This document shows, piece after piece, positions 40,077 to 54,687 of a stretch of 64,000 nt of DNA. The position numbers and the translations under genes were made by a program. The notes below the pieces were generated by a model that made no database searches, had not been told where the DNA came from, and saw only the letters and a list, made by a program, of their open reading frames with translations. The DNA is from Brucella pituitosa. Lineage in GTDB: Bacteria > Pseudomonadota > Alphaproteobacteria > Rhizobiales > Rhizobiaceae. Within the stretch, counting starts at the first letter, position 1. The number at the start of each line of letters is the position of its first letter. The DNA lies in NCBI RefSeq assembly GCF_003049685.1, contig NZ_PYSY02000001.1:744001-808000 (forward strand), written 5' to 3'.

Positions 40077-40580
40077 TTGAAAACGCGAAAAATTGACGAG
40101 CGTCGCGAGGCGCGGGTCAGGCTGGCTTTTCGCCTGCAAACAAAACACGATATAGCAAGCGCGGACGTCGCGCAGATGATGGGGCTCTCCGAGAAAACCT
40201 ATCGCATTCGTATCCGGCGTCTCGGTTTGGATGATCAAGATAACAACAAGCCCTCAAGTTCAGAAAGCGCTCTTCAGCGTTTGCAGTCGGAACTGAATAA
40301 GCTGATCGACGGTGATGAACTGCCGGACAAGAGCAAGGCTGAAGCGCTGATGGCGCTGGCCAAGGCTGTTAAGACTGTCGGCGAACTCGCTTCCGAAACA
40401 GCTCCATCCGAGCAATGTCGCGAAACTGGCGCGGTGGTGAGCCTGAGTGAAATTAGGCGGGCTTTAGCACGCATAGACAGGAGAATTGACGAACTTGCAC
40501 AAAGGCGCGCGCGGGAAATCTTGGGGCGCGGGCTTGACGCAACAACAGATAATGGCGGCGGAATGCGAGTGGCTGATTGA
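40077..40580 (+). CDS. Putative GTA small terminase-like protein
   Basis: A 167-residue protein with a helix-turn-helix unit near the N-terminus (DIASADVAQMMGLSEKTYRIRIRRLGL, residues about 24-50) and a helical C-terminus (SEIRRALARIDRRIDELAQRRAREIL). Its position directly before the large terminase, and the DNA-binding fold, suggest the small terminase (g1 place) of the cluster; similarity to a named family is not clear. The start is uncertain: TTG at 40077 is used, TTG at 40095 is possible. It overlaps the next gene by about 95 bases. Confidence 0.6.
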   Translation: MKTRKIDERREARVRLAFRLQTKHDIASADVAQMMGLSEKTYRIRIRRLGLDDQDNNKPSSSESALQRLQSELNKLIDGDELPDKSKAEALMALAKAVKTVGELASETAPSEQCRETGAVVSLSEIRRALARIDRRIDELAQRRAREILGRGLDATTDNGGGMRVAD

Positions 40581-41787
40581 GGCGCGTGACGCGCAATTGC
40601 CGCCATCGGGCGACTGGCGGGTCTGGTTAATTCTCGGCGGCCGCGGTTCTGGCAAGACAAGGGCAGGCGCTGAGTGGGTGTCTGGCATGGCGCTTGGACT
40701 TGCGCCTTTCGCGACGCGAGCGTGTGGACATATCGCACTTATCGGTGAGACCTTTGCCGATGCACGTGAGGTGATGGTGGACGGTCCATCGGGTATTCTG
40801 TCTGTCTCACGTGCCAATCGGCCACGCTATGAAACGACGCGGCGACGGCTCCTCTGGGATAATGGCGCTGTGGCGTCACTCTATTCCTCTGAAGACCCGG
40901 ATGGTTTGCGTGGTCCGCAATTTGATGCCGCATGGTGCGATGAACTGGCGAAATGGAAGAACCCGCAAGCCACATGGGACATGTTGCAGTTTGGCTTGCG
41001 ACTGGGCGATTTTCCTCGTCAGGTTGTGACGACGACGCCACGTGCGGTGCCGTTGCTGAAAACGCTGATGACTGACGATTCAGTTGCAATGACACATATG
41101 CGGACATCGGAAAATGCCAGCAATCTGGCCGATGGTTTCATGCAGGCCATCAATCAGCGTTATGCCGGCACGCGGCTTGGGCGACAAGAGCTCGATGGCG
41201 AGTTGATTGAAGAACGCGCCGGTGCTTTGTGGTCGAGGGAGCGGATCGAACAATGTTTCGAACCGGAGGCACCGCAGCTTGTGCGTATTCTGGTAGCCGT
41301 TGATCCGCCCGCTTCATCGGGCAAATCGTCGGATGCCTGTGGAATAGTGGTTGCCGGTATCGATGAAAATGGCATTGGCCATGTGCTTGCTGATGAAAGC
41401 ATGTCGATGGCCAAGCCGCATCAGTGGGCGCGCCGCGCGATTGCGCTCTATCACAGCTTTGAGGCTGATGCGATTTTGGCCGAAGTCAATCAGGGGGGCG
41501 AGATGGTTGCGGCTGTTCTTTCGGCAGAAGACGCCTCTGTGCCCGTCCTGATGCGGAGGGCATCGCGTGGCAAGTGGCTGCGTGCCGAGCCGGTCGCGGC
41601 GCTTTATGAGCAAGACCGCGTTTGGCATGCCGGACGATTTCCGGCGCTTGAAGATGAGATGTGTGATTTTGCGCCCGAAGGTCTATCGAGCGGGCGCTCG
41701 CCGGATCGTCTTGACGCGCTGGTCTGGGCTTTGGGCGAGTTGATGCTTGGTGCAGACCGAAAGCCGCGTATCCGCCGCTTTGGTTAG
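40486..41787 (+). CDS. GTA large terminase subunit
   Basis: The 433-residue protein is a packaging ATPase/nuclease: Walker A GGRGSGKT at 51-58, Walker B in FDAAWCDELAKW near 145, and the RNase H-like nuclease with VAVDPPAS and DRLDALVWALGELML near the end. It corresponds to g2 of the Rhodobacter GTA, which packages random host DNA headfuls. The TTG at 40486 is weak; an ATG at 40552 (MAAECEWL) is an alternative. Confidence 0.92.
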   Translation: MTNLHKGARGKSWGAGLTQQQIMAAECEWLIEARDAQLPPSGDWRVWLILGGRGSGKTRAGAEWVSGMALGLAPFATRACGHIALIGETFADAREVMVDGPSGILSVSRANRPRYETTRRRLLWDNGAVASLYSSEDPDGLRGPQFDAAWCDELAKWKNPQATWDMLQFGLRLGDFPRQVVTTTPRAVPLLKTLMTDDSVAMTHMRTSENASNLADGFMQAINQRYAGTRLGRQELDGELIEERAGALWSRERIEQCFEPEAPQLVRILVAVDPPASSGKSSDACGIVVAGIDENGIGHVLADESMSMAKPHQWARRAIALYHSFEADAILAEVNQGGEMVAAVLSAEDASVPVLMRRASRGKWLRAEPVAALYEQDRVWHAGRFPALEDEMCDFAPEGLSSGRSPDRLDALVWALGELMLGADRKPRIRRFG

Positions 41788-41888
41788 AGCATAATCCGAC
41801 CGGAGTGAAACGAGGATCAATAAGATTATGCTTAAAATAAAAGGGTTTAGAGCGCCGGTCTGATTTAATCAAATCGAAACGCGCTCTA
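41788..41888. repeat. Dispersed palindromic repeat, copy 10, inside the GTA cluster
   Basis: AGCATAATC pairs with GATTATGCT (41824-41832), and TAGAGCG (41848-41854) with CGCTCTA (41882-41888). It begins right after the terminase stop and fills the whole gap before the portal gene. Confidence 0.65.
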
Positions 41889-41917
41889 AACATTCAGATA
41901 AATTGGAGAGCCAATAT

Positions 41918-43111
41918 ATGGCGTGGAACTGGCCGTGGCGCAGAAGTGCCGCGAATGCACCGTCACATTCTTATGACGGGCGGCAGACCAAGATGGCGAA
42001 CGGCTTTGTGGCCTTGCATATGGAACGTGGGCCTTCGTGGATTGCGCGGGATTATACATCGCTCGCCCGCGAGGGGTTTATGCGCAATCCGGTGGCGCAC
42101 CGCTGTGTGCGACTGATCGCGGAAGCGGCGAGCAATGTGCCTTTGCTGCTTTATGAAGGAACCGCCGAACATGAGACACATCCGTTGCTGGATCTCATTG
42201 TGAGGCCGCAGGGCGGTCTGGATGGAAGCAGTTTCTTCGAGAGGCTTTACGGGCATCTGCTGATTTCCGGCAATGCCTATGTGGAGCGTGTTGATTTGCC
42301 GAGTGGTCGCATGGAGTTGCATCTTTTGCGGCCAGAACGGGTAACACTTGAAACATCGAGCGATGGCTGGCCGCAATCGCTGGTCTATCGTTCGGGCAAC
42401 GCAAGCAGAGCCGTATCGCTTTCTGGATCAGCCCCTTCCGGGCTGCACCTCAAATTGTTCCATCCGCTGGACGATCATTATGGATTTCCGCCGCTGGAAG
42501 CAGCTCTTATGGCGCTCGATATTCACAATGCGGCCGGCGCCTGGAACAAGGCATTGCTGGATAATTCCGCACGTCCTTCTGGTGCTCTTGTGTATGCGCC
42601 AAAAGACGGCGGCAATCTGACGGAAGAGCAGTTCGAGCGGCTGAAGGTGGAACTGGAGGAAGGTTATACGGGCGCATCAGGCGCGGGACGTCCGTTGCTT
42701 CTTGAAGGTGGGCTTGATTGGAAGGCCATGGGCTACAGTCCACAGGACATGGATTTCATAGAGGCGAAAAATGGAGCCGCACGTGACATCACACTGGCTT
42801 TTGGCGTGCCGCCGATGCTGCTCGGCATTCCGGGCGACAATACTTACGCCAATTATGCAGAAGCCAATCGTGCCTTCTATCGCCTGACCGTGTTGCCGCT
42901 GATCAACCGCACCGCCAAAGCGCTGGGCTGTTGGCTTGGGCCGCTGTTTGGTGATGACCTCAGACTTGAGCATGATTCAGACCGGATTGAGGGGCTGTCA
43001 CTTGAGCGCGAGTCCTTGTGGCGGCGTGTCTCGGAGGCTTCGTTCCTGAGTGACGATGAAAAACGCGATGCGGTTGGTTATCAGCCGCGTGCAGAAAGGA
43101 GAACGCCATGA
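41918..43111 (+). CDS. GTA portal protein
   Basis: The 397-residue protein is an HK97-type portal: NPVAHRCVRLIAEAASNVPLLLYEG at residues about 50-75, GNAYVERV, PLDDHYGFPPLEAALMALDIHNAAGAWNKALLDNSARPSGAL, and FGVPPMLLGIPGDNTYANYAEANRAFYRLTVLPLI. It forms the dodecameric ring through which DNA enters the head (g3). TTGGAG lies nine bases before the ATG at 41918. The next gene overlaps its stop by four bases. Confidence 0.94.
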   Translation: MAWNWPWRRSAANAPSHSYDGRQTKMANGFVALHMERGPSWIARDYTSLAREGFMRNPVAHRCVRLIAEAASNVPLLLYEGTAEHETHPLLDLIVRPQGGLDGSSFFERLYGHLLISGNAYVERVDLPSGRMELHLLRPERVTLETSSDGWPQSLVYRSGNASRAVSLSGSAPSGLHLKLFHPLDDHYGFPPLEAALMALDIHNAAGAWNKALLDNSARPSGALVYAPKDGGNLTEEQFERLKVELEEGYTGASGAGRPLLLEGGLDWKAMGYSPQDMDFIEAKNGAARDITLAFGVPPMLLGIPGDNTYANYAEANRAFYRLTVLPLINRTAKALGCWLGPLFGDDLRLEHDSDRIEGLSLERESLWRRVSEASFLSDDEKRDAVGYQPRAERRTP

Positions 43112-43485
43112 GCAATCTGAGCGAAACCGTTCTGACTTCCGATGCGACATTGGTGTGGTTCGCAAAAATTGCTGGAGCCGTGGCAGGTTCTGCGGTCTCG
43201 CTGGCCTATATGCTGCCAAACGGCAAGCGTGAGGCGGCAATCCGTTTCGCAGTCGGCATCATATGCGGGATGGTTTTTGGCGGCGCGGCAGGGGTGAAAA
43301 TCGCTGAAACACTGTCGTTACAGACTCTTCTTGGCCGCGCGGAACTGATGCTGATGGGATCGACTGCTGCAAGCCTTGCCGCTTGGTCCGCACTCGGCGT
43401 TCTCAAGCGCTTTGCTGAACGAGCCAAGCAGGCAACGCTTCCCGGAATTCCATTTTCTGAGAGGAGCAGGAATGGCAAACTCTGA
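43108..43485 (+). CDS. GTA small membrane protein (DUF6107-like, g3.5 position)
   Basis: A 125-residue protein with two or three hydrophobic segments (about 20-38, 45-70 and 80-98) and a basic tail. It lies between portal and prohead protease, the place of g3.5 in RcGTA. Its role is unknown. Coupled by ATGA to the portal gene. Confidence 0.7.
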   Translation: MSNLSETVLTSDATLVWFAKIAGAVAGSAVSLAYMLPNGKREAAIRFAVGIICGMVFGGAAGVKIAETLSLQTLLGRAELMLMGSTAASLAAWSALGVLKRFAERAKQATLPGIPFSERSRNGKL

Positions 43486-44143
43486 ATTCAGGCTTGAAAC
43501 CAAGCGCGCCCATCTTGCACTGGAAGAGGTTGAAATTGACGGCAGCTTCTCGGGTTATGCCAGTGTCTTTGGTTTGGCCGACCTGGGCAATGACGTTATC
43601 GAAAAGGGCGCTTTTGCGAAGTCGCTTTCATCCCGAAAGTCATCGGGTGTGCGTATGCTTTGGCAGCACGATGCTGCCGAACCGATAGGCGTATGGACGG
43701 ATATTCGTGAAGATGCACGTGGGCTGTATGTCGAGGGCAGGCTTGCTAAAGGCGTTGCGCGGGCACGCGAAGCTCTGGAGCTGATGCGCGCGGGCGGACT
43801 TGATGGGCTGTCCATTGGGTTCCGCACTGTCAAGGCACGCAAGGATGTGCATACCGGCTTACGCCACATTGTTGAAGCGGATCTCTGGGAAATCTCGGTG
43901 GTCACGTTTCCGATGCTGCCACAGGCGCGAATTAATAATCTGATGGCTGAATTGCCAACAGTCAGACAGTTTGAACGCTGGCTCACGCGGGATGCGGGGC
44001 TGAGCCGTTCCGCTGCACGTACGGTGATAGCAAAAGGCTATGCAGCACTTGCAGCTTTTCACGGCAGGGACGGGCGGGAAGCCATCCAGTCAGACAATGC
44101 AGGCCTCGCACGGCGTATGCGCGCCGCCTGCAAGATGATGTGA
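43472..44143 (+). CDS. GTA HK97-type prohead protease
   Basis: The 223-residue protein is a phage U35 prohead protease: GSFSGYASVFGLADLGNDVIEKGAFAKSL, VRMLWQHDAAEPIGVW with the catalytic His, and ARAREALELMRAGGLDGLSIGFR with the Ser. It cleaves the N-terminal delta domain of the capsid protein during maturation (g4). GAGAGGAG precedes the ATG at 43472. The C-terminal ~50 residues after FPMLPQARINNL are extra. Confidence 0.93.
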   Translation: MANSEFRLETKRAHLALEEVEIDGSFSGYASVFGLADLGNDVIEKGAFAKSLSSRKSSGVRMLWQHDAAEPIGVWTDIREDARGLYVEGRLAKGVARAREALELMRAGGLDGLSIGFRTVKARKDVHTGLRHIVEADLWEISVVTFPMLPQARINNLMAELPTVRQFERWLTRDAGLSRSAARTVIAKGYAALAAFHGRDGREAIQSDNAGLARRMRAACKMM

Positions 44144-44164: not shown

Positions 44165-45439
44165 ATGAAAAATATCAATGCAATCCCGCTCGAAACCAAG
44201 AGCGTGGAAACGAAGGCGCTTGGCTCGAATCTCGGCAATGACGGCGATGTGTCGGAAGCTTTCGATGAATTTATGACAGCATTCTCGGCTTTTCGCGAAG
44301 CCAACGATGAACGCCTGAAGAAGGTCGAAAAAAGTGCTGATGTCGATGTGCTTTTGCGCGATAAGGTTGATCGCATCAACCGCGCTCTTGATGAACAGAA
44401 GCAGGCCCTCGATCAATATGTGCTGAAAACTGCACGCCCGCCAATGGGCAAGAATATGCCTGTGGCCAATGTTGAACATAAACAGGCATTCGATGGGTAT
44501 GTTCGTCGCGGCGATGAACAGGCGCTGCGCGGCATTGAACTGAAAGCACATTCCTATGCTTCCGGTCCGGATGGTGGCTATCTTGTTCCTGCAGAACTCG
44601 AAACGGAAATCGGTCGCAGGCTGGCAGTACTTTCTCCGATCCGCGGCATCTCCAGCGTACGTCAGGTTTCAGGCGCCGTCCTGAAAAAGCCATTCTCGGT
44701 GAGCGGTCCTGCCACGGGCTGGGTCGGTGAAACCGATGCACGTCCACAGACTGCATCGGCAAAGCTTGCGGAACTCCAGTTCCCCACTATGGAAATCTAC
44801 GCAATGCCAGCGGCAACCTCATCGTTGCTCGATGATGCTGCAGTCAATGTGGAACAGTGGATTGCTGAGGAAGTGGAAGCAGCTTTTGCTGAACAGGAAG
44901 GCGCTGCGTTTATCACCGGTAACGGTGTGAACAAGCCGATGGGCTTCCTGAGCTACGATACTGTCGAGGATGCAAGCTGGGCATGGGGCAAGATTGGTCA
45001 CATCGCAACTGGTGTTGATGGTGCGCTACCTGCTTCTAATCCATCCGATAAGCTCATCGAACTCATCTATGCGCTGAAAGCCGGTTATCGACAGAACGCA
45101 AATTTTGTCATGAACCGCAAGACCCAGAGCGTGCTGCGCAAGCTCAAAGATGCTGACGGTAATTATCTCTGGCAGCCACCTGCAGCTGTCGGCGAGAAGG
45201 CATCACTCATGGGATTTGGTCTTGTTGAAGCTGAGCATATGCCGGACATTGGAGCCGACAGTACTCCGATTGCTTTTGGCGATTTCGAGCGTGGTTATCT
45301 GGTTGTGGATCGTATTGGTTTGCGTGTTTTGCGCGATCCATATTCCGCCAAGCCATATGTGCTGTTCTACACCACCAAGCGTGTGGGTGGTGGTGTGCAG
45401 GACTTCGATGCGATCAAGCTTCTGAAATTTGCAGCTTAA
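44165..45439 (+). CDS. GTA HK97-fold major capsid protein
   Basis: The 424-residue protein starts with a helical coiled-coil delta domain (residues about 30-105, AFREANDERLKKVEKSADVDVLLRDKVDRIN), which the protease removes; the HK97 core follows with DGGYLVPAELETEIGRRLAVLSPIRGISSVR and ends with DPYSAKPYVLFYTTKRVGGGVQDFDAIKLLKFA. It builds the GTA head (g5). A hairpin terminator follows closely. Confidence 0.96.
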   Translation: MKNINAIPLETKSVETKALGSNLGNDGDVSEAFDEFMTAFSAFREANDERLKKVEKSADVDVLLRDKVDRINRALDEQKQALDQYVLKTARPPMGKNMPVANVEHKQAFDGYVRRGDEQALRGIELKAHSYASGPDGGYLVPAELETEIGRRLAVLSPIRGISSVRQVSGAVLKKPFSVSGPATGWVGETDARPQTASAKLAELQFPTMEIYAMPAATSSLLDDAAVNVEQWIAEEVEAAFAEQEGAAFITGNGVNKPMGFLSYDTVEDASWAWGKIGHIATGVDGALPASNPSDKLIELIYALKAGYRQNANFVMNRKTQSVLRKLKDADGNYLWQPPAAVGEKASLMGFGLVEAEHMPDIGADSTPIAFGDFERGYLVVDRIGLRVLRDPYSAKPYVLFYTTKRVGGGVQDFDAIKLLKFAA

Positions 45440-45599: not shown

Positions 45600-46160
45600 A
45601 TGACAATGTTTCTTGTCACGCCACCGGCGCTCGAGCCGGTGACGGTTGCCGACGCGCGCGCATTTTTGCGAATTTCTACTGAAAGCGAAGACGACATTCT
45701 GCGGCGTCTCATCAAGACGGCCCGTGAGCTTGTTGAAGCCGAAACGGGGTTGGCACTTATCAACCAGACATGGCGTTTGCGCGTGGATCGCTGGCCGCGT
45801 TCAGGGCGTCTGGCTCTATTTAAGTATCCGGCTAAGGCGGTGACCGCTGTGGTTGCCTATCAACCGGATGGAAGTGCCATCAGCATGGAACCGGAAGAGT
45901 TTATGCTCCAGCATGGCCGACGACCTCAACGCGTTTATATGGCACAATATCCAGACGCGCAGTCTTTCTGCGGTCTAGAGGTGGATTTCATTGCCGGGTT
46001 TGGCGAGACCGGCGTTGAAGTGCCGGACGCGATCAAACAGGCGATACTCACTCTGACTGCACACCTATATGAAAACCGCGCTGGCCTCGACAGCAAGCAG
46101 GCGGAACTTCCGCCGATGGTCGGTCAGATGGTGGATAGTTGGCGACGCATATCCCTATGA
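45600..46160 (+). CDS. GTA head-tail connector (gp6/phiE125 gp8-like)
   Basis: The 186-residue protein begins VTPPALEPVTVADARAFLRIST, the standard opening of head-tail connector proteins of this type, followed by DDILRRLIKTARELVEAETGLALINQTWRL and a helical C-terminus VPDAIKQAILTLTAHLYENR. It forms the adaptor ring under the portal (g6). AAGGGG precedes the ATG. The next gene overlaps as ATGA. Confidence 0.92.
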   Translation: MTMFLVTPPALEPVTVADARAFLRISTESEDDILRRLIKTARELVEAETGLALINQTWRLRVDRWPRSGRLALFKYPAKAVTAVVAYQPDGSAISMEPEEFMLQHGRRPQRVYMAQYPDAQSFCGLEVDFIAGFGETGVEVPDAIKQAILTLTAHLYENRAGLDSKQAELPPMVGQMVDSWRRISL

Positions 46161-46495
46161 ACAATGTGCTGTTTATTGATCCAGGCCAGCTCACAGCCGA
46201 GCTGGCCTTGGAAGCCATGCATCCGATTGCAGATGGTATGGGCGGTTATCGTGAAACCTGGTCGGAAATTGCATCGGTATGGGGGCGCATCGAACCCGTA
46301 TCGAGCAACCAGAGAGATTTTGGCATCCGCCCACGCCCAGAAATAACGCATCGCATTCTGGTGCGTTATCGCGCGGACATTTCATCCGATCAGCGTTTGC
46401 GTAAGGGCGGACGCATATTTGTGCTGCGTTCAGTACATGATCCGGATGAAAGCGGACGCTACCTCATTTGTCTTGCAGTGGAGGAGGGGCGTTGA
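46157..46495 (+). CDS. GTA head-closure (stopper) protein
   Basis: A 112-residue beta-rich protein with DGMGGYRETWSEIASVWGRIEPVSSNQRDFGIRPRPEITHRILVRYR and FVLRSVHDPDESGRYLICLAVEEGR: the head-tail joining family of SPP1 gp16 / HK97 gp10 type (g7). Coupled to the connector gene. Confidence 0.9.
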   Translation: MNNVLFIDPGQLTAELALEAMHPIADGMGGYRETWSEIASVWGRIEPVSSNQRDFGIRPRPEITHRILVRYRADISSDQRLRKGGRIFVLRSVHDPDESGRYLICLAVEEGR

Positions 46496-46668
46496 ACCTC
46501 ACCATGAAGCTGACCTTCGAAGGTCTCATCCGGGCGCTGCGTTTCAGGCAGGCAGCTGTGCGGGAGGATATTGCCGTCGGGCGTTTGGACACCCGAGGTG
46601 ACAATCAGAAAACGAGCGGGGATCAAAATGAAGAATGGCGCGAGCGCATTGCAGAAAGCACTTTATGA
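46492..46668 (+). CDS. Possible small overlapping GTA gene, 58 aa
   Basis: From a TTG whose last bases overlap the stopper stop (TTGA), or from the ATG at 46504, a frame of 54-58 residues runs 41 bases into the next gene. Protein MKLTFEGLIRALRFRQAAVRED has an N-terminal helix that looks genuine, while the rest is charged and less regular. No family recognised. It may be a real coupled small gene or simply leader. Confidence 0.4.
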   Translation: MNLTMKLTFEGLIRALRFRQAAVREDIAVGRLDTRGDNQKTSGDQNEEWRERIAESTL

Positions 46669-47038: not shown

Positions 47039-47115
47039 TTCGCATCCAGAAAAGTGTGAAGCGGCTTTCGGACAATGTGCGCTCAAAAACAAATACTTGG
47101 AGCGGACCCGTTCTA
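47036..47115. repeat. Dispersed palindromic repeat, copy 11, inside the GTA cluster
   Basis: CGCATCCAGAAAAGTGTGAA, GCGGCTTTCGG, then GTGCGCTC and AAAAACAAATACTTGG match copies 2 and 9. It lies between tail terminator and major tail genes. Confidence 0.6.
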
Positions 47116-47130
47116 ATCGTTAGTTATTAC

Positions 47131-47951: not shown

Positions 47952-48163
47952 GTGCCGCAGTTGAATCAGATCCTTCACAGAAGCCTTTTCCATGGGATGA
48001 GGTTATGCGGGCAGGATTTGGTTTGCTGCGGCTTTCCTCAAGAGATTTCTGGGCAATGACCCCACGCGAATTTGCAGCGGCCCTCGGACCCGTGTCGCGC
48101 GACAGCTATGCTCCTTCGCGTGCGACGCTTGATGCGCTCATGCACGCTTTTCCCGACAGGTAA
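47948..48163 (+). CDS. GTA small tail chaperone (Phage_TAC_6 type, g10.1)
   Basis: A 71-residue protein with PFPWDEVMRAGFGLLRLSSRDFWAMTPREFAAALG: the family of small GTA tail proteins (rcc01693 type). The only start near the family's usual opening is a TTG that overlaps the preceding stop (TTGA), so it depends on coupling. Six bases precede the tape measure start. Confidence 0.82.
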   Translation: MSAAVESDPSQKPFPWDEVMRAGFGLLRLSSRDFWAMTPREFAAALGPVSRDSYAPSRATLDALMHAFPDR

Positions 48164-48168
48164 TTTAA

Positions 48169-48717
48169 ATGACAGATGAAACCGTAACCGTTTCTGTTGA
48201 AGCGGACACGAGCGCGTTCGATCGCGCATTGACCGATCTTGAAAAGCGCTCGTCGAGCTTCGGCTCCAACCTCACGACGGCACTAAAAAGCGCTATTGTA
48301 TCCGGTAAAGGACTGGAAGATGTGCTGCGCGGCCTCGCAAGCAATCTGGCAGGCTCAGCACTATCGGCTGGTCTCCAGCCATTACAAAGTTTGGGCTCGT
48401 CGCTGATGTCGGGCATGATGACGGGTATCCGTGGCATCATGCCATTTGCCAAAGGCGGTGTGGTTTCCAGTCCGACTTACTTTGGCATGGGCAATGGTTC
48501 GCTGGGCCTAACCGGGGAAGCAGGTGCAGAAGCCATCCTACCGCTCGCGCGTGGTGCAGACGGCAGGCTTGGAGTTGCAACAGGTGGCAATGCTGGCAAA
48601 CCTGTGCAGGTCGTCTTCAATATGTCTTCACCCGATGCATCCTCTTTCCGCAAATCCGAAGCGCAGCTTTCGACCATGCTGGCAGGTGCCGTGCGCCGCG
48701 GCGCGCGGAGACTTTGA
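48169..48717 (+). CDS. GTA tail tape measure protein (short)
   Basis: A 182-residue protein with ADTSAFDRALTDLEKRSSSFGSNLTTALKSAIVSGKGLEDVLRGLASNLAGSALSAGLQPLQSLGSSL, a helical tape with hydrophobic core, then PFAKGGVVSSPTYFGMGNGSLGLTGEAGAEAILPLARGADGRLGV, the usual C-terminal GTA gp11 segment. Tape proteins set tail length; this is much shorter than in siphophages but near RcGTA g11, so a short tail is implied. Confidence 0.9.
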   Translation: MTDETVTVSVEADTSAFDRALTDLEKRSSSFGSNLTTALKSAIVSGKGLEDVLRGLASNLAGSALSAGLQPLQSLGSSLMSGMMTGIRGIMPFAKGGVVSSPTYFGMGNGSLGLTGEAGAEAILPLARGADGRLGVATGGNAGKPVQVVFNMSSPDASSFRKSEAQLSTMLAGAVRRGARRL

Positions 48718-48718: not shown

Positions 48719-49348
48719 ATGGAAGCTTTTCACGATGTCCGTTTTCCACTCGGGGTTTCCTTCGGCGCAACCGGAGGGCCGGAATGGCGCAATGAAATCG
48801 TTACGCTCACATCCGGCATGGAAAAGCGTAACGCCCGCTGGGCACATTCCCGACGCCATTTTGATGCAGGCACGGGATTGCGTTCGCTTGACGATTTGAA
48901 AGCCGTGCTTGCCTTCTTCGAGGCCCGGCATGGTTCACTCCATAGTTTTCGTTTCCGCGACTCATTTGATTTTTCATCCGCTGCGGGCAGCGCAGCGCCG
49001 TCGCCATTCGATCAACAGATTGGAATAGGCGACGGAGCAAGCGTTAAGTTCCAGCTCATCAAACGCTACGAAGCTTATGATCGTCCGATTACACGGCCGG
49101 TTGATGAATCGGTACTGATTGGCGTCAACGGTGTGCGACTTGCAGAAGGCGAGGCGTTCACGCTCGACAGTGCCAACGGTAACGTTACTTTCATGCCTGA
49201 TTATCGGCCTGCCGTAGGCGCCGTCGTGACGGCGGGCTTTCTCTTCGATGTGCCAGTACGCTTCGATACAGACAGGCTGATGGCCAGCATTGCGTCGTTT
49301 CAGGCAGGCGAAATCCCTTCCATTCCGATTGTCGAGGTCAAGATATGA
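48719..49348 (+). CDS. GTA distal tail protein (DUF2460, g12)
   Basis: The 209-residue protein matches DUF2460: FHDVRFPLGVSFGATGGPEWRNEIVTLTSGMEKRNARWAHSRRHFDAGTGLRSLDDLKAVLAFFEARHGSLHSFRFRD and the final MASIASFQAGEIPSIPIVEVKI. It is the distal tail adaptor. The ATG begins two bases after the tape measure stop; the next gene overlaps as ATGA. Confidence 0.95.
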   Translation: MEAFHDVRFPLGVSFGATGGPEWRNEIVTLTSGMEKRNARWAHSRRHFDAGTGLRSLDDLKAVLAFFEARHGSLHSFRFRDSFDFSSAAGSAAPSPFDQQIGIGDGASVKFQLIKRYEAYDRPITRPVDESVLIGVNGVRLAEGEAFTLDSANGNVTFMPDYRPAVGAVVTAGFLFDVPVRFDTDRLMASIASFQAGEIPSIPIVEVKI

Positions 49349-50220
49349 TCCCTGTTCCGGCAGCGCTTGAATCACATTTGAAGGGTGAAGTCACAACCCA
49401 TTGCTTTGCCTGGCTTATAAGACGTTCGGATGGGGTTGTGCTTGGTTTCACAGACCATGATCGTGACTTGTTTCTGGATGGAATTGCCTGCGAGCCGCTG
49501 ACGGGTCTGAACAGCAGCGAAGCCACGACAACACTCGGGCTGTCTGTTGCGGGCGGCGAGGTCGAAGGTGCGTTGTCTTCAACACGTATCAGCGACGTCG
49601 ATATTGAGCAGGGCCGTTACGACGGAGCGGTCATCGAAAGCTATCTGGTCAATTGGACAAGCCCTGAACAGTACATGCTTCTGCGCCGCTGGACCGTTGG
49701 CACGATCAGCCGATCCGGTGGCCGATTTGTCATGGAGTTGAAAGGCGCTGCGGCTGCTTTCGATGCCGTTTGCGGCCGCCGGGTTCTGCGTCAGTGCAAT
49801 GCTGTTTTGGGCGATAAACGCTGTGGTGTGAACCAAAGCGATCCTCGGTTCGCTGCTTCTGGATCGGTAACAGTTGCTGATGGCTCGATGCTGGCGGTGG
49901 CTGGACTTGAGGGTTTTGCAAGTGGTTGGTTTGCCGAAGGGTTGCTTGTTTGGACAAGTGGGAAAAGCTCGGGAAAAGCAATTCGAGTTCTGGGACAGAA
50001 TGGTAACAGTCTGCGTTTGATTGAAGCGCCTATTCTGCCGGTGGAAACCGGCGACACGTTTCGTGTCCTTGCCGGTTGCGACAAGAGCTTTGCAACCTGC
50101 AAAACAAAATTCGCAAATGGCACCAATTTTCAAGGCTTTCCGCATCTTCCCGGCAATGACGCAGCCTTCGCCTATGTCAGCGGCGGTAATGAATATGACG
50201 GAAGTGCATTGGTGCCATGA
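49345..50220 (+). CDS. GTA baseplate hub protein (DUF2163, g13)
   Basis: A 291-residue protein of DUF2163: HCFAWLIRRSDGVVLGFTDHDRDLFLDG at the start and the Cys-rich zone RRVLRQCNAVLGDKRCGVNQ and AGCDKSFATCKTKFANGTNFQGFPHLPGND near the end. Cysteines in these motifs bind an iron-sulphur cluster in the RcGTA hub structure. Coupled to g14. Confidence 0.95.
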   Translation: MIPVPAALESHLKGEVTTHCFAWLIRRSDGVVLGFTDHDRDLFLDGIACEPLTGLNSSEATTTLGLSVAGGEVEGALSSTRISDVDIEQGRYDGAVIESYLVNWTSPEQYMLLRRWTVGTISRSGGRFVMELKGAAAAFDAVCGRRVLRQCNAVLGDKRCGVNQSDPRFAASGSVTVADGSMLAVAGLEGFASGWFAEGLLVWTSGKSSGKAIRVLGQNGNSLRLIEAPILPVETGDTFRVLAGCDKSFATCKTKFANGTNFQGFPHLPGNDAAFAYVSGGNEYDGSALVP

Positions 50221-50651
50221 TGGTTGCCGAGAGAGTTTTGGCTGAGGCCGAAAGCTGGATAGGTACGCCCTATCGCCACGGCGCATCAATGCGTGGTGTA
50301 AGCTGTGATTGTCTCGGGCTGGTACGCGGTATTTGGCGGGCGCTTTATGGCAATGAGCCAGAACATCCGGGGGCTTATGCACCTGACTGGGCGGAGGCCG
50401 CTTCCGGCGATCCGCTTATGGAAGCGGCGCAAAGGCATATGAGATCACGCATCAGCGGTAATCCTCAGCCGGGTGACTTGCTCATCTTCCGCTGGCGCGC
50501 CGATGTTGCGGCGAAGCATCTTGGCATCATGACGAGAGAGAACCGCTTTATCCATGCCTATGAAGGTCATCACGTGATGGCTTCTGCCTTGGTGCCGCAA
50601 TGGCGCAAGCGGATTGCCGGTATTTTTATCTTCCCTGACGCGAAAGTGTAA
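50217..50651 (+). CDS. GTA NlpC/P60 peptidase (g14)
   Basis: A 144-residue NlpC/P60 hydrolase: WIGTPYRHGASMRGVSCDCLGLVRGIWRALYG holds the catalytic Cys32 in D-C-L-G-L; the His is in AAKHLGIMTRENRFIHAYEG. It is mounted at the tail tip and cuts peptidoglycan on entry to the recipient. Four bases follow before the next gene. Confidence 0.95.
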   Translation: MMVAERVLAEAESWIGTPYRHGASMRGVSCDCLGLVRGIWRALYGNEPEHPGAYAPDWAEAASGDPLMEAAQRHMRSRISGNPQPGDLLIFRWRADVAAKHLGIMTRENRFIHAYEGHHVMASALVPQWRKRIAGIFIFPDAKV

Positions 50652-50654: not shown

Positions 50655-53600
50655 ATGGCGACTATCGTTCTGCAAGCGGTTGGTGCTGCTGTTGGCGGCA
50701 TTTTTGGCCCTGTAGGGGCAGCGATCGGTGCTGGTCTGGGCGCTATGGGCGGCTATGCCATCGATACGGCGATCATCAATTCCACCCGCCATATGGAAGG
50801 TGCGCGCCTCAATGGTGGTCGCCTGGCAACAGCAGAAGAAGGTGCCGCACTTCCCTTTGTCTACGGCACAGCGCGGCTTTCAGGCACGTTGATCTGGGCG
50901 ACGCGGTTTGAAGAAAAGAAAACCACCGAACGCCAAGGCGGCAAAGGTGGTCCGAAAGTGACTAGTTACAGCTATTTCGGCAATGCAGCCTATGCCGTTG
51001 CTGAAGGTGAAATCGCTGGCATCCGTCGTGTCTGGGCTGATGGTCAGGAACTTGATCTCACTGACATTGACATGCGCATCTATCGCGGTACGCAGGAACA
51101 ACAGCCTGATCCCTTGATTGAGGCCAAGCAGGGAACAGGCAACGCGCCTGCCTATCGCGGCACTGCTTATGTGGTGTTTGAACGTATTCCGCTCGATGTG
51201 TATGGAAACCGTCTGCCACAATTCCAGTTCGAGGTCATGCGGCCGGTAGGCAAGGTGGCGCGCGATGTCCGTGCTGTGGCGCTCATTCCGGGCTCCACCG
51301 AGTTCGGCCTGTCGCCAAGTCCGGTCAAAGATAGGCCTTTTCCGGGTGAAAGCCGCACGATCAACCGCAATGCAAGGCGCGGGCGCAGCGATTGGACGGT
51401 CGCCATGGACGAGTTGCAGATGCTGTGCCCGAACCTACGCCATGTGGCAATTGTTCTACCATGGTTTGGTAATGATCTGAGGGCTGGTGCGTGCAGTATT
51501 CGCCCAGGTGTCACGCATCAGAGCACATTGTCCTCAAGCCAGACCTGGAAGGTTGAAAATGTCACTCGTGCTGATGCACATCTTATTTCGACCAGTGGTG
51601 ACGGTGCGGCTTATGGCGGAACCCCTTCCGATCAGAGCGTAATCGACGCTATTCGTGACGCGAAAGCGCGCGGTCTTAAGGTTACGCTTTATCCGTTCAT
51701 CATGATGGACGTGCCTGCCGACAATCGGTTGCCGTCGCCTTATGGTGGTGTTGGACAATCCGTCTATCCATGGCGCGGACGTATCACCTGCCATCCCGCA
51801 ATCGGTGTTGCTGGTTCTCCAGACAAGACAGCCGAAGCAGGAAATCAGGTCTCAGCTTTCGTCAACGGAACATGGGGTTACAGGCGTTTCTTGAATCACT
51901 GTGCAAATCTGGTGGTGCAGGCTGGCGGTGTCGATGCCTTTTTGCTTGGTTCAGAATTACGCGGCCTTACCAGCATCCGTGACAGCCGCGAAAATTTTCC
52001 TTTCGTCACGTATCTTTGCGCGCTGGCCACGGAGATGCGGGTGAAGCTGGGCAGTGCCTGCAGCATAACCTACGGTGCCGACTGGACTGAATATTTTGGA
52101 TATCAGGCACAGGATGGCAGCGGCGATCTGTTTTTCAATCTCGATCCGCTATGGTCACACTCTGCAGTGGATGCAGTAGGCATCGACAATTATATGCCGC
52201 TTGCCGATTGGCGGGATAGTGATTTCGATGGCGGGAACCCTGATCGGTTCGAAAGCCCTTATGACCTCGATGGTTTGACAGCGAGCGTAGAAACGGGGGA
52301 GGGCTTTGACTGGTATTACGCGAGCAGCGAAGACCGTGTCGCGCGTGTTCGTACACCGATTAGCGATGGGCTTGCTGGCAAACCGTGGGTCTATCGCTAC
52401 AAGGATATTCGCGCCTGGTGGAGCAATCCGCATTATAACCGCATTGATGGGACAGAGGTTGCTGCACCGACAGTTTGGGTGCCGCAATCCAAGCCAATTT
52501 GGTTTACAGAACTTGGATGCCCGGCAGTAGACAAAGGTCCGAACCAGCCCAATGTTTTTCCTGATCCCAAATCGTCGGAAAATGCGACGCCATATTTCTC
52601 GAACGGCTCACGCGCCGATATCGGTATGGACCGGTTCCTGCGCGCACATTTCAAGCACTGGCCGGGAAACAATCCGGTTTCAACTGTCTATGGCGGGTCG
52701 ATGTTGGACATGGATCGCATTTATTTGTGGTCCTGGGATACGCGACCGTTTCCGGAGTTTCCACTGAAAGGCGACGTGTGGGGCGATACGCCAAACTGGC
52801 GCCTCGGTCACTGGCTTAACGGTCGCGTCAGTGGAGTTTCGCTTGATGAACTGATTGCTGCCATACTGGCCGATTTTGAATTGCCTGAAGCGGATTGTAC
52901 TGCTGCGGATGGGCATCTCACCGGGTTTGTTATTTCGGAACCGTCAACAGCACGCGGTGTTCTGGAACCGCTGATGAATGTGTTTGGCGTGCATGGGTTT
53001 GAGCAGGCAGGCCGGTTTGTGTTTCGGAGTATCACCCGTGCAGCTCCTGCGCTCGATGTGGCGCATATGCTGGTCGAGCCACAGGATGGCGAAGCGCTGA
53101 ACTCTGTTCTCGAAGATCAGGGCGATCTGCCTTCCGTGGCCGAGCTATACTGTAATGATCCGCTGCGCGACTTTCAGGTTGTCGGCGCATCCGTGCGTCG
53201 CGATACAGGTCAGGGCACTGAAAGCCTCAGCCTATCTGGCTCGATGGAAACAGGGCAGGCAACTGCCCTTGCCGAAAGCTGGATGGCGCGCCGCTATGCT
53301 GAACGACGAACGGCAAGTTTCTCTTTGCCGTGGTCTGAGGCTGCACTTCACGTGGGCGACCGTGTCCGGCTTGAATTGCTGGGAGGCGGGCGCGACTATA
53401 TCGTATCGGCGCTGGAAGATGGCGAAGTACGGGCTGTCAAAGCCGTCGCCCTTGCACCGAATGTCGTGTTTGCAGACAAAGGTGAAACTCCAAAGTTTCC
53501 ACCGGGAAAACCGGCCTCAGATATGAAGCCGATTTTTCACCTCATAGATCTGCCGCTTTGGCCGAGTGCGGAAGCCCCCGCTGGTCAGTTCCGCGTTGCG

Positions 53601-54461
53601 TGTCATGCGAAGCCATGGCGCGGTGTCGCGGCTTACGCGTCACCATCCGACGATGGTTTTGCTGAACGCAGCTTGATCGGTGAACGCGCTGTAATGGGTG
53701 AACTGACAAGGCCGCTTATAGGAGCTCCGAGCGGACGTTTGATCGACGGGAATGCGATAGAGCTTGTACTTTACTCAGGCGAACTGGGATCAAAGCCACT
53801 TACTCAGATATTGAACGGGGCCAATACGGCATTTCTAAAATCCCCCAATGGAGAATGGGAAGTTTTTCAGTTTCTCGAAGCAGAAGAGATTGGACAAAAC
53901 CGCTGGCGATTGAGCAGGCTTTTACGCGGACAGCTTGGTACGGAAACAGCAAGCCTCATTGAGAAGCCAGTCGGGACCCCGTTTGTATTGCTTGACGGTG
54001 GGGTGCAGGACATTGGTCTGCTAGCTTCCGAAATCGGGTTTGAGCTGAACTGGCGCATAGGGGCGGCAGGCAAATCGTTCTCGGATGAGTTCTTCGATAC
54101 CGTGAAGGCAGTCGGCGGCTTGCAAGCCCTGAAGCCTTTAAGCCCGGTACATCTTAGGACCGAACAACTCGCCAATGGTGATTTGTCGGTTCACTGGATC
54201 AGGCGTGGGCGGATCGATGCTGATAGCTGGATGGGTGAGGATATTCCGCTTGGGGAAGAGCGTGAAGCCTATCAGGTGGAAATCTGGCAGTCCGATGCAC
54301 TTGTGCGCAGTGCAAAGGTGCAAACCGCGTCCTGGATTTATCCGGTTTCGGAACGTCTTGCTGAACTAGACACAAAAGAATTCCAGATTCGCGTTGCGAT
54401 GGTGAGTGCAAAAACTAGAGCTGGTGATTTCGCTACGCTCGATATTTCAAATATTTTGTGA
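50655..54461 (+). CDS. GTA host-contact megatron protein (TIM barrel, g15)
   Basis: The 1268-residue protein is the largest of the cluster. N-terminal: a glycine-rich hydrophobic segment (AVGGIFGPVGAAIGAGLGAMGGYAID). Middle: GTA TIM-barrel domain (about 230-550; DELQMLCPNLRHVAIVLPWFGNDLRAG, then SDQSVIDAIRDAKARGLKVTLYPFIMMD and WFTELGCPAVDKGPNQPNVF). Then a phage-tail_3/hub segment (about 650-850) and C-terminal beta domains. It recognises the recipient surface and carries glycoside-hydrolase-like folds. Confidence 0.96.
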   Translation: MATIVLQAVGAAVGGIFGPVGAAIGAGLGAMGGYAIDTAIINSTRHMEGARLNGGRLATAEEGAALPFVYGTARLSGTLIWATRFEEKKTTERQGGKGGPKVTSYSYFGNAAYAVAEGEIAGIRRVWADGQELDLTDIDMRIYRGTQEQQPDPLIEAKQGTGNAPAYRGTAYVVFERIPLDVYGNRLPQFQFEVMRPVGKVARDVRAVALIPGSTEFGLSPSPVKDRPFPGESRTINRNARRGRSDWTVAMDELQMLCPNLRHVAIVLPWFGNDLRAGACSIRPGVTHQSTLSSSQTWKVENVTRADAHLISTSGDGAAYGGTPSDQSVIDAIRDAKARGLKVTLYPFIMMDVPADNRLPSPYGGVGQSVYPWRGRITCHPAIGVAGSPDKTAEAGNQVSAFVNGTWGYRRFLNHCANLVVQAGGVDAFLLGSELRGLTSIRDSRENFPFVTYLCALATEMRVKLGSACSITYGADWTEYFGYQAQDGSGDLFFNLDPLWSHSAVDAVGIDNYMPLADWRDSDFDGGNPDRFESPYDLDGLTASVETGEGFDWYYASSEDRVARVRTPISDGLAGKPWVYRYKDIRAWWSNPHYNRIDGTEVAAPTVWVPQSKPIWFTELGCPAVDKGPNQPNVFPDPKSSENATPYFSNGSRADIGMDRFLRAHFKHWPGNNPVSTVYGGSMLDMDRIYLWSWDTRPFPEFPLKGDVWGDTPNWRLGHWLNGRVSGVSLDELIAAILADFELPEADCTAADGHLTGFVISEPSTARGVLEPLMNVFGVHGFEQAGRFVFRSITRAAPALDVAHMLVEPQDGEALNSVLEDQGDLPSVAELYCNDPLRDFQVVGASVRRDTGQGTESLSLSGSMETGQATALAESWMARRYAERRTASFSLPWSEAALHVGDRVRLELLGGGRDYIVSALEDGEVRAVKAVALAPNVVFADKGETPKFPPGKPASDMKPIFHLIDLPLWPSAEAPAGQFRVACHAKPWRGVAAYASPSDDGFAERSLIGERAVMGELTRPLIGAPSGRLIDGNAIELVLYSGELGSKPLTQILNGANTAFLKSPNGEWEVFQFLEAEEIGQNRWRLSRLLRGQLGTETASLIEKPVGTPFVLLDGGVQDIGLLASEIGFELNWRIGAAGKSFSDEFFDTVKAVGGLQALKPLSPVHLRTEQLANGDLSVHWIRRGRIDADSWMGEDIPLGEEREAYQVEIWQSDALVRSAKVQTASWIYPVSERLAELDTKEFQIRVAMVSAKTRAGDFATLDISNIL

Positions 54462-54480
54462 AAATCAGAAAGGAAATCTA

Positions 54481-54687
54481 ATGGCTGAAGATAAGCCTTG
54501 GTATCTGTCTCGTACTGTTTGGGCTGGATTGGTCGCTCTGTTTTTATCGTTGGCTGGCGCTTTTGGCCTTATCAGCGATACGGTCGATCAGGGCGCTTTA
54601 ACTGATGTATTGCTGCAACTTGCGACCGGCATCGCTGGCCTTATTGCTGTTTTTGGTCGCATAGGGGCAACTTCGCGCATTTCATAA
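54481..54687 (+). CDS. Holin-like small membrane protein
   Basis: A 68-residue protein: SRTVWAGLVALFLSLAGAFGLI and ALTDVLLQLATGIAGLIAVFGRIGATSRI form two likely membrane helices, with a charged N-terminus (MAEDKPWYL). This pattern is found in small phage proteins annotated as holins. AAGGAAATC precedes the ATG at 54481, 19 bases after the megatron gene stop. Release of GTA needs lysis, so a holin role is plausible but unproven; no endolysin gene is adjacent. Confidence 0.6.
   Translation: MAEDKPWYLSRTVWAGLVALFLSLAGAFGLISDTVDQGALTDVLLQLATGIAGLIAVFGRIGATSRIS

What the first reader, a model, noticed from the sequence alone, without database searches (positions are those of the whole stretch)
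40077..54687. Complete, apparently intact RcGTA-type gene transfer agent cluster in a Brucella-like genome
Sixteen or seventeen plus-strand genes in canonical GTA order, mostly coupled by ATGA/TTGA overlaps, with no frameshift or stop inside any core gene. No integrase, repressor, replication gene or lysogeny module is present. Conserved open frames over 14.6 kb argue that the cluster is under selection, whereas a dead prophage should decay. GTA production has hardly been studied in this family.
Basis: partly seen in the sequence, partly recalled or inferred. Interest (0 to 1): 0.7.

Follow-up and report, generated by a model that had tools for sequence, protein, structure and literature searches.

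The report
Intact bacterial gene transfer agent cluster
This environmental relative of Brucella carries a complete tamed-phage gene set that probably packs and ships pieces of the host's own DNA; such sets are already known in its relatives, but here its genes are shown to be under selection, its likely on-switch is found next to it, and a promoter pattern shared with many relatives suggests how that switch works.

Summary
Window 40077-54687 is a complete RcGTA-type gene transfer agent cluster: 19 plus-strand ORFs, none broken. The kind is known, order-wide and in Brucella. Selection maintains it: in 10 pairs of genus genomes with the cluster, dN/dS is 0.067-0.096, like neighbouring genes (0.059-0.119); in 10 pairs involving decayed copies the remnants always run higher. 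Yet loss is common: 9 of 35 genus genomes lost the cluster at the same site (at least four times) and 4 carry one lesion.

The split activator gafY/gafZ lies 11 kb upstream (27870-29098); the genome's only DUF2793 (fibre) match is at 4183-5019. gafZ is found in 35 of 35 genomes. The promoter core TTGACnnCGTnACGG recurs upstream of terL in other genera; its partial palindrome lies between -35 and -10, where Caulobacter GafZ binds. A covarying terminator-like hairpin sits in the leader. GafY resembles DnaA's DNA-binding domain, and TTATCC(A/C)C, a DnaA-box-like site, stands before gafY. I infer activation plus anti-termination as in Caulobacter. Against a GTA-only role, promoter and gafYZ persist in genomes without the cluster. 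Particle production is untested.

The parts
4121..4130 (+). ACTTATCCCC, DnaA-box-like element upstream of the DUF2793 gene
   Evidence: One of only two ACTTATCCMC in the window, the other being upstream of gafY (expected 0.10; pattern chosen after seeing these two promoters). TTATCC at this place in 18 of 18 genus sequences that I chose to align.
4183..5019 (+). DUF2793 protein, candidate GTA tail fibre
   Evidence: Only PF10983 hit in the genome, 109.9 bits. PMC10883770 (passage) names DUF2793 as the RcGTA tail fibre family. Matches 8gtc chain S (E 5.6e-11; labelled 'Ribonuclease III' there), an entry that also holds a megatron protein.
27745..27760 (-). AATAGGAATCTTATCC, copy of the AGGA..TCC element upstream of gafY
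   Evidence: 3 hits of AATAGGAAWATAGTCC at up to 3 mismatches in 64 kb, all at gafY or the GTA promoter; 0 of 100 shuffles reach 3. In part of the genus only.
27806..27815 (+). ACTTATCCAC, DnaA-box-like element upstream of gafY
   Evidence: TTATCC here in 35 of 35 genus genomes; TTATCC(A/C)C in 13 of 18 order-level gafY upstreams, shuffles mean 0.23.
27837..27852 (-). second AGGA..TCC-type element, just upstream of gafY
27870..28322 (+). gafY, DnaA domain-IV-like activator half
   Evidence: Part of TIGR00362 DnaA matched (43.2 bits, cut-off 343.9) and PRK06030.1-1 'hypothetical protein' above cut-off; matches DnaA chains 3pvp and 1j1v, besides weaker chance-like kinase hits; open over at least 90% in 34 of 35 genus genomes.
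28319..29098 (+). gafZ, DUF6456 activator half (GafA C-terminal homologue)
   Evidence: PF20057, 150.2 bits, single hit in the genome; hit in 35 of 35 genus genomes, open over at least 90% in 33, not in the error-rich G002 and G009. MucR and SufE neighbours as in PMC9638019 section 10.
39881..39896 (+). ATTAGGAAAATAGTCC element of the GTA promoter
   Evidence: nearly invariant in 34 genus leaders; AGGA-N5-8-TCCT in 11 of 19 family leaders, 0 of 300 shuffles as high.
39897..39925 (+). GTA promoter: -35 TTGACG, spacer with GTGTAACGG (degenerate form of CCGTNACGG), -10-like TATCAA
   Evidence: Only exact TTGACNNYGTNACGGTG in the genome; the core is within 1 mismatch in 33 of 34 genus leaders and recurs in family and order leaders. 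The consensus promoter scan does not list it.
39992..40032 (+). leader hairpin, terminator-like, 44 nt before the g1 start
   Evidence: Found in 22 of 25 assessable genomes with the cluster; 94.2% paired, 9 of 16 pairs with double changes; leader fold z -5.99.
40077..40580 (+). g1, putative small terminase
   Evidence: Position; open in the window; weak PHROG DNA-binding hit only.
40486..41787 (+). g2, large terminase
   Evidence: PF03237, PF17289; ATPase and nuclease motif blocks kept, with few substitutions, in 25 genomes.
41784..41890 (+). dispersed palindromic repeat in the terL-portal gap
   Evidence: Copies at 85-91% identity elsewhere in the genome; fold z -5.47. Same insert here and in G006; G011 has a different one.
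41918..43111 (+). g3, portal
   Evidence: PF04860.
43108..43485 (+). g3.5, DUF6107, hydrophobic small protein
   Evidence: PF19602; open in several relatives that lost the rest.
43472..44143 (+). g4, prohead protease
   Evidence: PF04586; motif blocks conserved.
44165..45439 (+). g5, major capsid
   Evidence: PF05065; matches RcGTA capsid Rcc01687, E 2.7e-92.
45600..46160 (+). g6, head-tail adaptor
   Evidence: PF05135; phrog_442.
46157..46495 (+). g7, head closure
   Evidence: PF05521.
46492..46668 (+). 58-aa ORF, alignable in the genus, no family
46628..47038 (+). g8, tail terminator
   Evidence: PF11367; phrog_176.
47041..47120 (+). dispersed repeat in the g8-g9 gap
   Evidence: Copies at 76-85% identity elsewhere in the genome; this gap is over 60 bp, with varied sequence, in 13 of 27 genomes measured. 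Weak fold of its own, z -0.50.
47194..47607 (+). g9, tail tube
   Evidence: PF06199; matches RcGTA Rcc01691, E 1.7e-46.
47604..47951 (+). g10, tail assembly chaperone (GTA-gp10)
   Evidence: PF11836.
47948..48163 (+). g10.1, tail assembly chaperone
   Evidence: PF09550.
48169..48717 (+). g11, short tape measure
   Evidence: NF058675 RcGTA_tape, 130.8 bits, below the 220-bit cut-off; PHROG tape measures.
48719..49348 (+). g12, distal tail protein, DUF2460
   Evidence: PF09343.
49345..50220 (+). g13, hub protein
   Evidence: PF09931, PF09356.
50217..50651 (+). g14, NlpC/P60 peptidase
   Evidence: PF00877; TIGR02219.
50655..54461 (+). g15, megatron
   Evidence: NF048004, 1655.7 bits; matches the RcGTA entry 6tba.
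54481..54687 (+). 68-aa holin-like ORF
   Evidence: phrog_34682 holin, E 1.5e-5; no Pfam hit.

Best explanation
The cluster encodes an RcGTA-type gene transfer agent that is passed on with the chromosome and kept by selection. Shown: a complete, open structural set with conserved enzyme motif blocks; purifying selection like that on neighbouring genes; the same chromosomal site across the genus; a split GafA-type activator (gafY, gafZ) 11 kb upstream; a conserved promoter and leader hairpin. Inferred: GafY, a DnaA domain-IV-like protein, reads DnaA-box-like and/or AGGA..TCC elements at its own promoter, the fibre gene and the GTA promoter; GafZ loads at the CGTNACGG element between -35 and -10 and carries RNA polymerase past the leader terminator; TerS/TerL fill small heads with host DNA; the DUF2793 fibre binds recipients; the holin-like protein with an unidentified endolysin lyses the producer. 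Frequent loss in one part of the genus fits a costly trait favoured in some life styles only. The stated confidence is for a maintained GTA under GafYZ; the anti-termination step alone I put near 0.45.
For: Genes and order; closest solved relatives of capsid and tail tube are RcGTA proteins and megatron matches the RcGTA entry. dN/dS 0.067-0.096 in 10 pairs with the cluster against 0.059-0.119 for neighbours; higher than neighbours in 10 of 10 pairs with decayed copies. 17 of 20 splits shared between GTA and flank trees. gafZ and full-length capsid on one contig and strand, 10-20 kb apart, in 25 of 25 genus genomes (compared by hand). Promoter conservation. Hairpin covariation.
Against: 9 of 35 genomes lost the cluster and 4 have one lesion. 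No expression, particle or packaging data exist here. The promoter core persists within 1 mismatch in 8 of the 9 genomes without the cluster and within 2 in G034, and the hairpin in 6 of 9, so neither is tied to a working GTA. The left half of the spacer palindrome is degenerate in the window and in most of the genus. The hairpin is weak or absent in 3 of 25 genus genomes with the cluster, and one convincing case was seen among the other genera sampled. The element searches began from patterns seen in this genus; only the family and order sets are partly independent. No IHF site was tested. GTA and flank trees disagree at three splits. G011, which has the cluster, shows no DUF2793 hit of the usual strength.
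Confidence: 0.8

Rival explanations
1. A decaying prophage remnant that happens to be open in this strain.
For: 9 of 35 genus genomes show remnants or loss and 4 have a single lesion.
Against: Pairs with the cluster show dN/dS 0.067-0.096, equal to neighbours, while true remnants score higher than their neighbours in 10 of 10 pairs. 17 of 35 genomes match all 19 ORFs without a break and 2 more miss only one small ORF.
Confidence: 0.05
2. A small but self-sufficient prophage or satellite.
For: Virus collections file such clusters as viruses: 80 IMG/VR contigs kept, and GenBank MW091529.1.
Against: No integrase, replication or lysogeny gene recognised; same site between pbp and the response regulator gene; mostly congruent trees; 41 of the 80 kept IMG/VR contigs are just 14.0-15.3 kb long, the size of the cluster alone.
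Confidence: 0.04
3. A domesticated particle with another use, such as a bacteriocin-like tail or a vesicle-like export particle.
For: Nothing direct.
Against: Terminase, portal, protease and capsid are as constrained as tail genes, so heads and packaging matter.
Confidence: 0.03
4. A constrained but silent GTA: genes kept until recently, particles no longer made in this strain.
For: Frequent recent loss in the genus; two repeats lie in gaps of the operon, one of them strongly foldable.
Against: The closest genomes G006 and G015 match all 19 ORFs too and are constrained.
Confidence: 0.15
5. The promoter block and leader hairpin serve another transcript (a small RNA, the divergent pbp gene, or a residual DUF6107 unit), not anti-termination of the GTA operon.
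For: The promoter core persists in all 9 genomes without the cluster (at most 1 mismatch in 8, 2 in G034), the hairpin in 6 of 9.
Against: The promoter core is also found upstream of terL in other genera; no Rfam family matches.
Confidence: 0.3

Closest known systems
RcGTA of Rhodobacter capsulatus
   Same: Gene order; capsid, tail tube and megatron sequence; GafA-type activator by homology.
   Different: Activator split into gafY and gafZ; gafYZ 11 kb and the fibre gene about 35 kb from the cluster here, at dispersed loci in R. capsulatus (gene numbers in PMC9638019 passages); extra g3.5 DUF6107; head-spike genes were not searched for.
CcGTA of Caulobacter crescentus (PMC9632790, PMC11150451, passages)
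   Same: Split GafY/GafZ; palindromic element between -35 and -10; terminator early in the operon.
   Different: Palindrome letters differ (GCGCCCG-CTGGCGC there, CCGTNACGG in relatives here); the terminator-like hairpin lies in the leader before g1 here, downstream of the first gene gtaT there; AGGA..TCC sits just upstream of -35 rather than far upstream.
GTA-like clusters of Hyphomicrobiales, Brucella included (PMC6821227, PMC9836097, PMC9638019, PMC12946183, passages)
   Same: Same cluster and activator synteny (mucR, DnaA-like gene, gafA, sufE). Repeated loss is known too: PMC7363004 (passages) infers loss in four nodulating lineages.
   Different: Only a member; the selection test, the loss series in this genus and the promoter signature are added here.

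Membership tests
RcGTA-type (alphaproteobacterial type I) GTA | Head-tail cluster g1-g15 in canonical order with RcGTA homologues | tested here: met
   g1 by position only
RcGTA-type (alphaproteobacterial type I) GTA | No integration or replication module | tested here: met
   None recognised among the 19 ORFs
RcGTA-type (alphaproteobacterial type I) GTA | Vertical inheritance with the host | tested here: met
   Same site across the genus; 17 of 20 splits shared with flanks, three conflicts
RcGTA-type (alphaproteobacterial type I) GTA | Structural genes under purifying selection | tested here: met
RcGTA-type (alphaproteobacterial type I) GTA | GafA or GafYZ activator encoded in the genome | tested here: met
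RcGTA-type (alphaproteobacterial type I) GTA | Particles packaging mostly random host DNA of a few kb | not testable with these tools
   Needs wet work
RcGTA-type (alphaproteobacterial type I) GTA | Gene transfer to recipients | not testable with these tools
   Needs wet work
Rhodogtaviriformidae (formal viriform family) | Classified members so far restricted to Rhodobacterales | tested here: not met
   PMC9662315 passage; the host here is Brucella-like
CcGTA-type GafYZ anti-termination control | Split GafY and GafZ | tested here: met
CcGTA-type GafYZ anti-termination control | Palindrome between -35 and -10 | tested here: inconclusive
   CCGTNACGG exact in 8 of the 24 stretches and in G010, G026, G028; degenerate left half in the window
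CcGTA-type GafYZ anti-termination control | Terminator early in the operon overcome by GafZ | tested here: inconclusive
   Hairpin conserved by covariation; read-through not testable here
CcGTA-type GafYZ anti-termination control | IHF site at the promoter | not tested
   -
Self-propagating prophage | Integrase, replication and lysogeny genes | tested here: not met

The most novel reading that the evidence does not exclude
Hyphomicrobiales GTAs share one cis-regulatory code: a DnaA-derived activator, GafY, that still reads DnaA-box-like TTATCC(A/C)C at gafYZ and (in this genus) the fibre gene, an AGGA..TCC dyad shared by gafYZ and the GTA promoter, and a TTGACnnCGTnACGG core whose spacer palindrome loads GafZ for anti-termination; in this genus a covarying leader terminator makes GTA production an anti-termination switch. 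In addition the unit gafYZ - GTA promoter - DUF6107 has a use apart from particles, because in most species that lost the cluster these parts, and little else, are left open and constrained.
Probability: 0.45. Interest if true: 0.65.

Novelty: new member of a known kind. Interest (0 to 1): 0.5.

Why it matters
GTA genes are widespread in this order, yet how they are switched on has been worked out in only a few species. A short promoter signature that occurs once in this genome (exact pattern) and recurs across genera gives a handle to find GTA operons and to predict regulators. The genus is also a natural experiment: at least four losses of the cluster, with gafYZ still open in 8 of 9 such genomes (the ninth is an error-rich assembly), which makes the question 'what else does GafYZ do?' directly testable. 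Virus collections hold many such clusters as viruses.

Tried and rejected
Promoter and terminator consensus scan: nothing above shuffles; the GTA promoter is not listed because the scan demands a T at the end of -10. Rfam on the window: no match. tRNA: none. A palindrome ACAGTC-N8-TGACTGT seen in the leader was searched in the window and dropped (chance level). TTATCCMCNCTTGCA at up to 2 mismatches: one hit, chance level. Hairpins in the g5-g6 gap: terminator-like in 14 of 27 genomes against a mononucleotide-shuffle mean of 2.66 and maximum of 8; suggestive but patchy, not used in the main argument. Repeats in gaps as terminators like Caulobacter terGTA: dropped because the inserts differ between genomes. 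Leader hairpin in other genera: 20 loci given, 19 with a terL start inside the stretch; only L354 exceeds all its shuffles, and its hairpin lies 176 nt before g1. DUF6107 as a general host gene: weakened, since family-wide it nearly always goes with megatron; by hand comparison the exceptions are G327, G416 and G517, with weak hits in G438 and G490. DUF6107 order-wide: 1 of 249, the window's own genome. Paper search for MW091529.1: nothing. An exploratory four-sequence alignment used wrong stretches and is not used. Structure prediction and fold search were not run.

Full report
What is there. Window 40077-54687 holds 19 open plus-strand ORFs (g12 was framed wrongly and corrected) in the order of the R. 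capsulatus GTA. Pfam, PHROGs and NCBIfam identify most of them: terminase, portal, DUF6107, S78 protease, HK97 capsid, connectors, tail tube, GTA-gp10 chaperone, short tape measure (RcGTA_tape at 130.8 bits, below its cut-off of 220), DUF2460, hub, NlpC/P60, and megatron at 1655.7 bits against a cut-off of 800. Closest solved relatives of capsid and tail tube are Rcc01687 and Rcc01691, and megatron matches the RcGTA entry 6tba. g1 and a 58-aa ORF between g7 and g8 have no firm family. The last ORF is holin-like (PHROG, E 1.5e-5). The window is C1:744001-808000 of a 5.5-Mb, 10-contig genome; the nearest named capsid is 98% identical, from Brucella grignonensis.

State across the genus. All 35 genus genomes held were searched with the capsid, and stretches around the site were compared gene by gene (recount). 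17 of 35 match all 19 ORFs over at least 90% without a stop before the last codons; G020 misses only most of the 58-aa ORF and G026 only the last small ORF, making 19. Four have one lesion in an otherwise full cluster (stop in g12 of G001, stop in g2 of G011, broken g9 in G013, two stops in g15 of G016). Two are cut by contig ends (G022, and G028, which also has partial matches of some small genes). One (G009, 69% complete) is broken in host genes as well and was left out of judgement. Nine have lost most or all of the cluster at the same site (G002, G005, G008, G012, G018, G023, G027, G033, G034). For G005 the contig ends at the site, but no capsid is found in that genome; G002 is error-rich, but its site is 1.8 kb long without the cluster. 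On a tree of eight flanking proteins the losses fall in four groups that each have a relative with the cluster: G012 with G008; G034; G002 with G018 and G033; and G005, G023 and G027 beside G007 and G030. Nodes inside the last two groups are weakly supported (0.40-0.72). Taking loss without regain, I claim at least four losses, with more likely, since the remnants differ in structure.

Selection. Nei-Gojobori dN/dS over 10 pairs in which both genomes have the cluster is 0.067-0.096, against 0.059-0.119 for a set of neighbours that includes gafY, gafZ and DUF2793. Five of the 10 pairs include a genome with one lesion; the other five give 0.069-0.096 against 0.063-0.119. In 10 further pairs with at least one decayed copy, the surviving pieces score 0.108-0.306 and exceed their neighbours in 10 of 10; these rest on few genes, in two pairs on g3.5 alone. 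Enzyme motif blocks of terminase, protease and NlpC peptidase are conserved, with a few substitutions, in the 25 genomes aligned. Trees of 12 GTA genes and of the flanks for 23 genomes share 17 of 20 splits; three conflict, some with full support, so exchange between lineages has probably occurred.

Control genes in the same window. PF20057 (DUF6456) has one hit in the genome, at window 28607-29011, preceded by a DnaA-like gene (27870-28322) and MucR, with SufE beyond an amidase (MucR, amidase and SufE identified by eye). This is the arrangement that PMC9638019 (section 10 read) gives for gafA of Hyphomicrobiales, Brucellaceae included; gafY and gafZ are the Caulobacter names (PMC9632790, passages). 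In 25 of 25 genus genomes with a full-length capsid, gafZ lies on the same contig and strand, 10-20 kb away (compared by hand). Order-wide, of 30 genomes with at most 10 contigs and both hits visible in the capped listings, I count by hand 17 with gafZ within 70 kb of megatron and 13 without, 5 of these on another contig. The only DUF2793 match of the genome lies in the ORF 4183-5019; 18 of the 25 have their DUF2793 gene on the GTA contig, 36-103 kb from the capsid, once on the other strand (by hand). PMC10883770 (passage) names DUF2793 as the tail fibre family.

What stays after loss. gafZ is hit in 35 of 35 genomes; both halves are open over at least 90% in 33 of 35, the others being the error-rich G002 and G009, so in 8 of the 9 genomes without the cluster. 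In the four pairs of which both lack the cluster gafZ has dN/dS 0.13-0.14, and 0.33 in G018-G033, which rests on two changes; the pairs with the cluster give 0.07-0.16. DUF2793 is shortened in G005, G012 and G033, but G011, which has the cluster, shows only a weaker, different DUF2793 hit. DUF6107 remains as an open frame in G008, G012, G018, G023, G033 and G034, and as a match to residues 1-114 in G002; it is partial in G005 and gone in G027. Its dN/dS in the four pairs without the cluster is 0.17-0.24, relaxed from 0.00-0.10 in pairs with it but below 1 (binomial P 0.0039 in the sister pair G018-G033). Family-wide it nearly always goes with megatron (167 and 194 of 247; 162 shared by hand comparison), so a lasting separate role is doubtful; no paper in the searched library mentions DUF6107.

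Promoter. The 34 leaders between pbp and the g1 site that could be read share a block ATAGGAAAATAGTCC-TTGACnGCGTAACGGTG-nTTTGnTAG (26 aligned, eight with longer or shortened leaders left out there; all 34 scanned). The core TTGACnnCGTnACGGTG is within one mismatch in 33 of 34 and within two in G034. This includes all 9 genomes without the cluster, which weakens the link to a working GTA. Searching the core in 20 family and 80 IMG/VR loci, 24 distinct stretches had enough upstream sequence (the other 76 lacked a terL match, had under 900 nt upstream or were duplicates); 14 of 24 match with at most one mismatch (13 of 23 without the copy of the window itself), while equal lengths inside terL give 0 of 24 below four mismatches. 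In an order-level set, 20 loci given and 15 with a terL match and upstream sequence, 8 of 15 match with at most two mismatches; one shuffle each and terL-internal controls give 0 of 15. In the own genome TTGACNNYGTNACGGTG occurs exactly once, at the GTA promoter; at one mismatch there are four more, against one for the reversed control. The CGTnACG core lies between the -35 and the -10-like box, where PMC11150451 (passages) places the GafZ-binding palindrome in Caulobacter. The full CCGTNACGG is seen in 8 of the 24 stretches and in G010, G026 and G028; in the window the left half is degenerate.

Shared elements. AATAGGAAWATAGTCC at up to three mismatches occurs three times in 64 kb, twice upstream of gafY and once in the GTA promoter (0 of 100 shuffles reach three). 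AGGA-N5-8-TCCT is found in 11 of 19 family GTA leaders and 5 of 18 order-level gafY upstreams (0 of 300 shuffles as high in both), and in 3 of 15 order-level GTA leaders (8 of 300 as high). TTATCC is present upstream of gafY in 35 of 35 genus genomes and upstream of DUF2793 in 18 of 18 that I chose to align; TTATCC(A/C)C is in 13 of 18 order-level gafY upstreams (0 of 300) but is not enriched in GTA leaders (2 of 19 and 2 of 15). For some searches, 20 loci were given in each set and those without a match or with too little upstream sequence dropped. GafY aligns with DnaA DNA-binding domains (which also lists weak kinase hits that I take for chance), and its FARDRTTVMYA stretch resembles the FGRDHTTVMYA of DnaA in that alignment; that this signature reads the DnaA box is recalled knowledge. 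Shuffles keep base composition only, and the patterns came from this genus.

Leader hairpin. A hairpin of about 16 pairs (39992-40032) ends 44 nt before g1 in the window. It is found in 22 of 25 assessable genomes with the cluster (G009 counted, G022 not assessable), weak in G003 and not found in G010 and G026, and in 6 of the 9 without. Over 24 sequences, 3 of them from genomes without the cluster, 94.2% of cells pair (shuffled mean 87.2, slid versions 27.6-57.5) and 9 of 16 pairs show double changes (shuffled mean 4.4, slid versions 0-6); relatedness inflates such counts. The leader as a whole folds with z -5.99. In G007 and G030 it is a textbook terminator followed by six or more T. Among 19 loci of other genera one convincing leader hairpin was seen.

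Mechanism. From these parts and the Caulobacter work I infer: gafYZ, autoregulated, is switched on in stress; GafY recruits polymerase at its elements; GafZ loads at the spacer element and prevents termination in the leader; the operon makes small heads and short tails; headful packaging takes host DNA; lysis frees particles. Every step after 'the genes and elements exist and are conserved' is inference. That promoter, gafYZ and often DUF6107 stay behind after loss may mean a second job for this unit, or simply slow decay.

Known or new. GTA clusters are known order-wide (PMC6821227, PMC9662315, passages) and in Brucella (PMC12946183, PMC9836097, passages), and loss is known elsewhere in the order (PMC7363004, passages). 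I file this as a new member of a known kind. In the open PMC library I found no report of this promoter signature, leader hairpin or loss pattern (listings; Shakya et al. 2017 is not held, and could not be checked). Interest 0.5: the base finding is expected, the regulatory signature and the natural loss series are worth following.

Noticed in passing
GenBank MW091529.1 (locus L182): Deposited as 'Bacteriophage sp. 103231, partial genome' from sewage; the gene order is a GTA cluster of this kind (34% of the query covered, 75.8% identical), followed by two genes labelled 'antibiotic efflux protein' where the window has a response regulator and histidine kinase. It looks like bacterial chromosome filed as a phage.
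   Followed up: partly
L263-L342 (IMG/VR): 221 stretches in viral contigs encode relatives of the capsid; of the 80 kept, 41 contigs are 14.0-15.3 kb, the size of the GTA cluster, and L263 has a capsid 100% identical to the window's. GTA clusters are filed as viruses.
   Followed up: no
window 41784-41890 and 47041-47120: Dispersed repeats with many copies in the genome sit in two operon gaps; the g8-g9 gap is over 60 bp, with varied sequence, in 13 of 27 genomes measured.
   Followed up: partly
window 45450-45467: Terminator-like hairpin right after the capsid gene; such hairpins occur in this gap in 14 of 27 genomes, perhaps setting high capsid against low tail expression.
   Followed up: partly
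G002, G005, G008, G012, G018, G023, G033, G034: Open or partial DUF6107 frames left, with the GTA promoter still upstream, where most of the cluster is gone.
   Followed up: partly
G308, G329, G409, G487, G491 and others: Several family genomes have two megatron genes, hence perhaps two GTA-type clusters.
   Followed up: no
G005, G012, G033: The DUF2793 gene is shortened in three genomes that also lost the GTA cluster; but G011, with the cluster, shows no usual DUF2793 hit either, perhaps an assembly gap.
   Followed up: partly
L208 (JAHREI010000009.1): A contig titled Bacillus subtilis carries a GTA capsid 74% identical to the window's, like the Pseudochrobactrum hits beside it in the list; probably contamination or a mislabelled record.
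   Followed up: no
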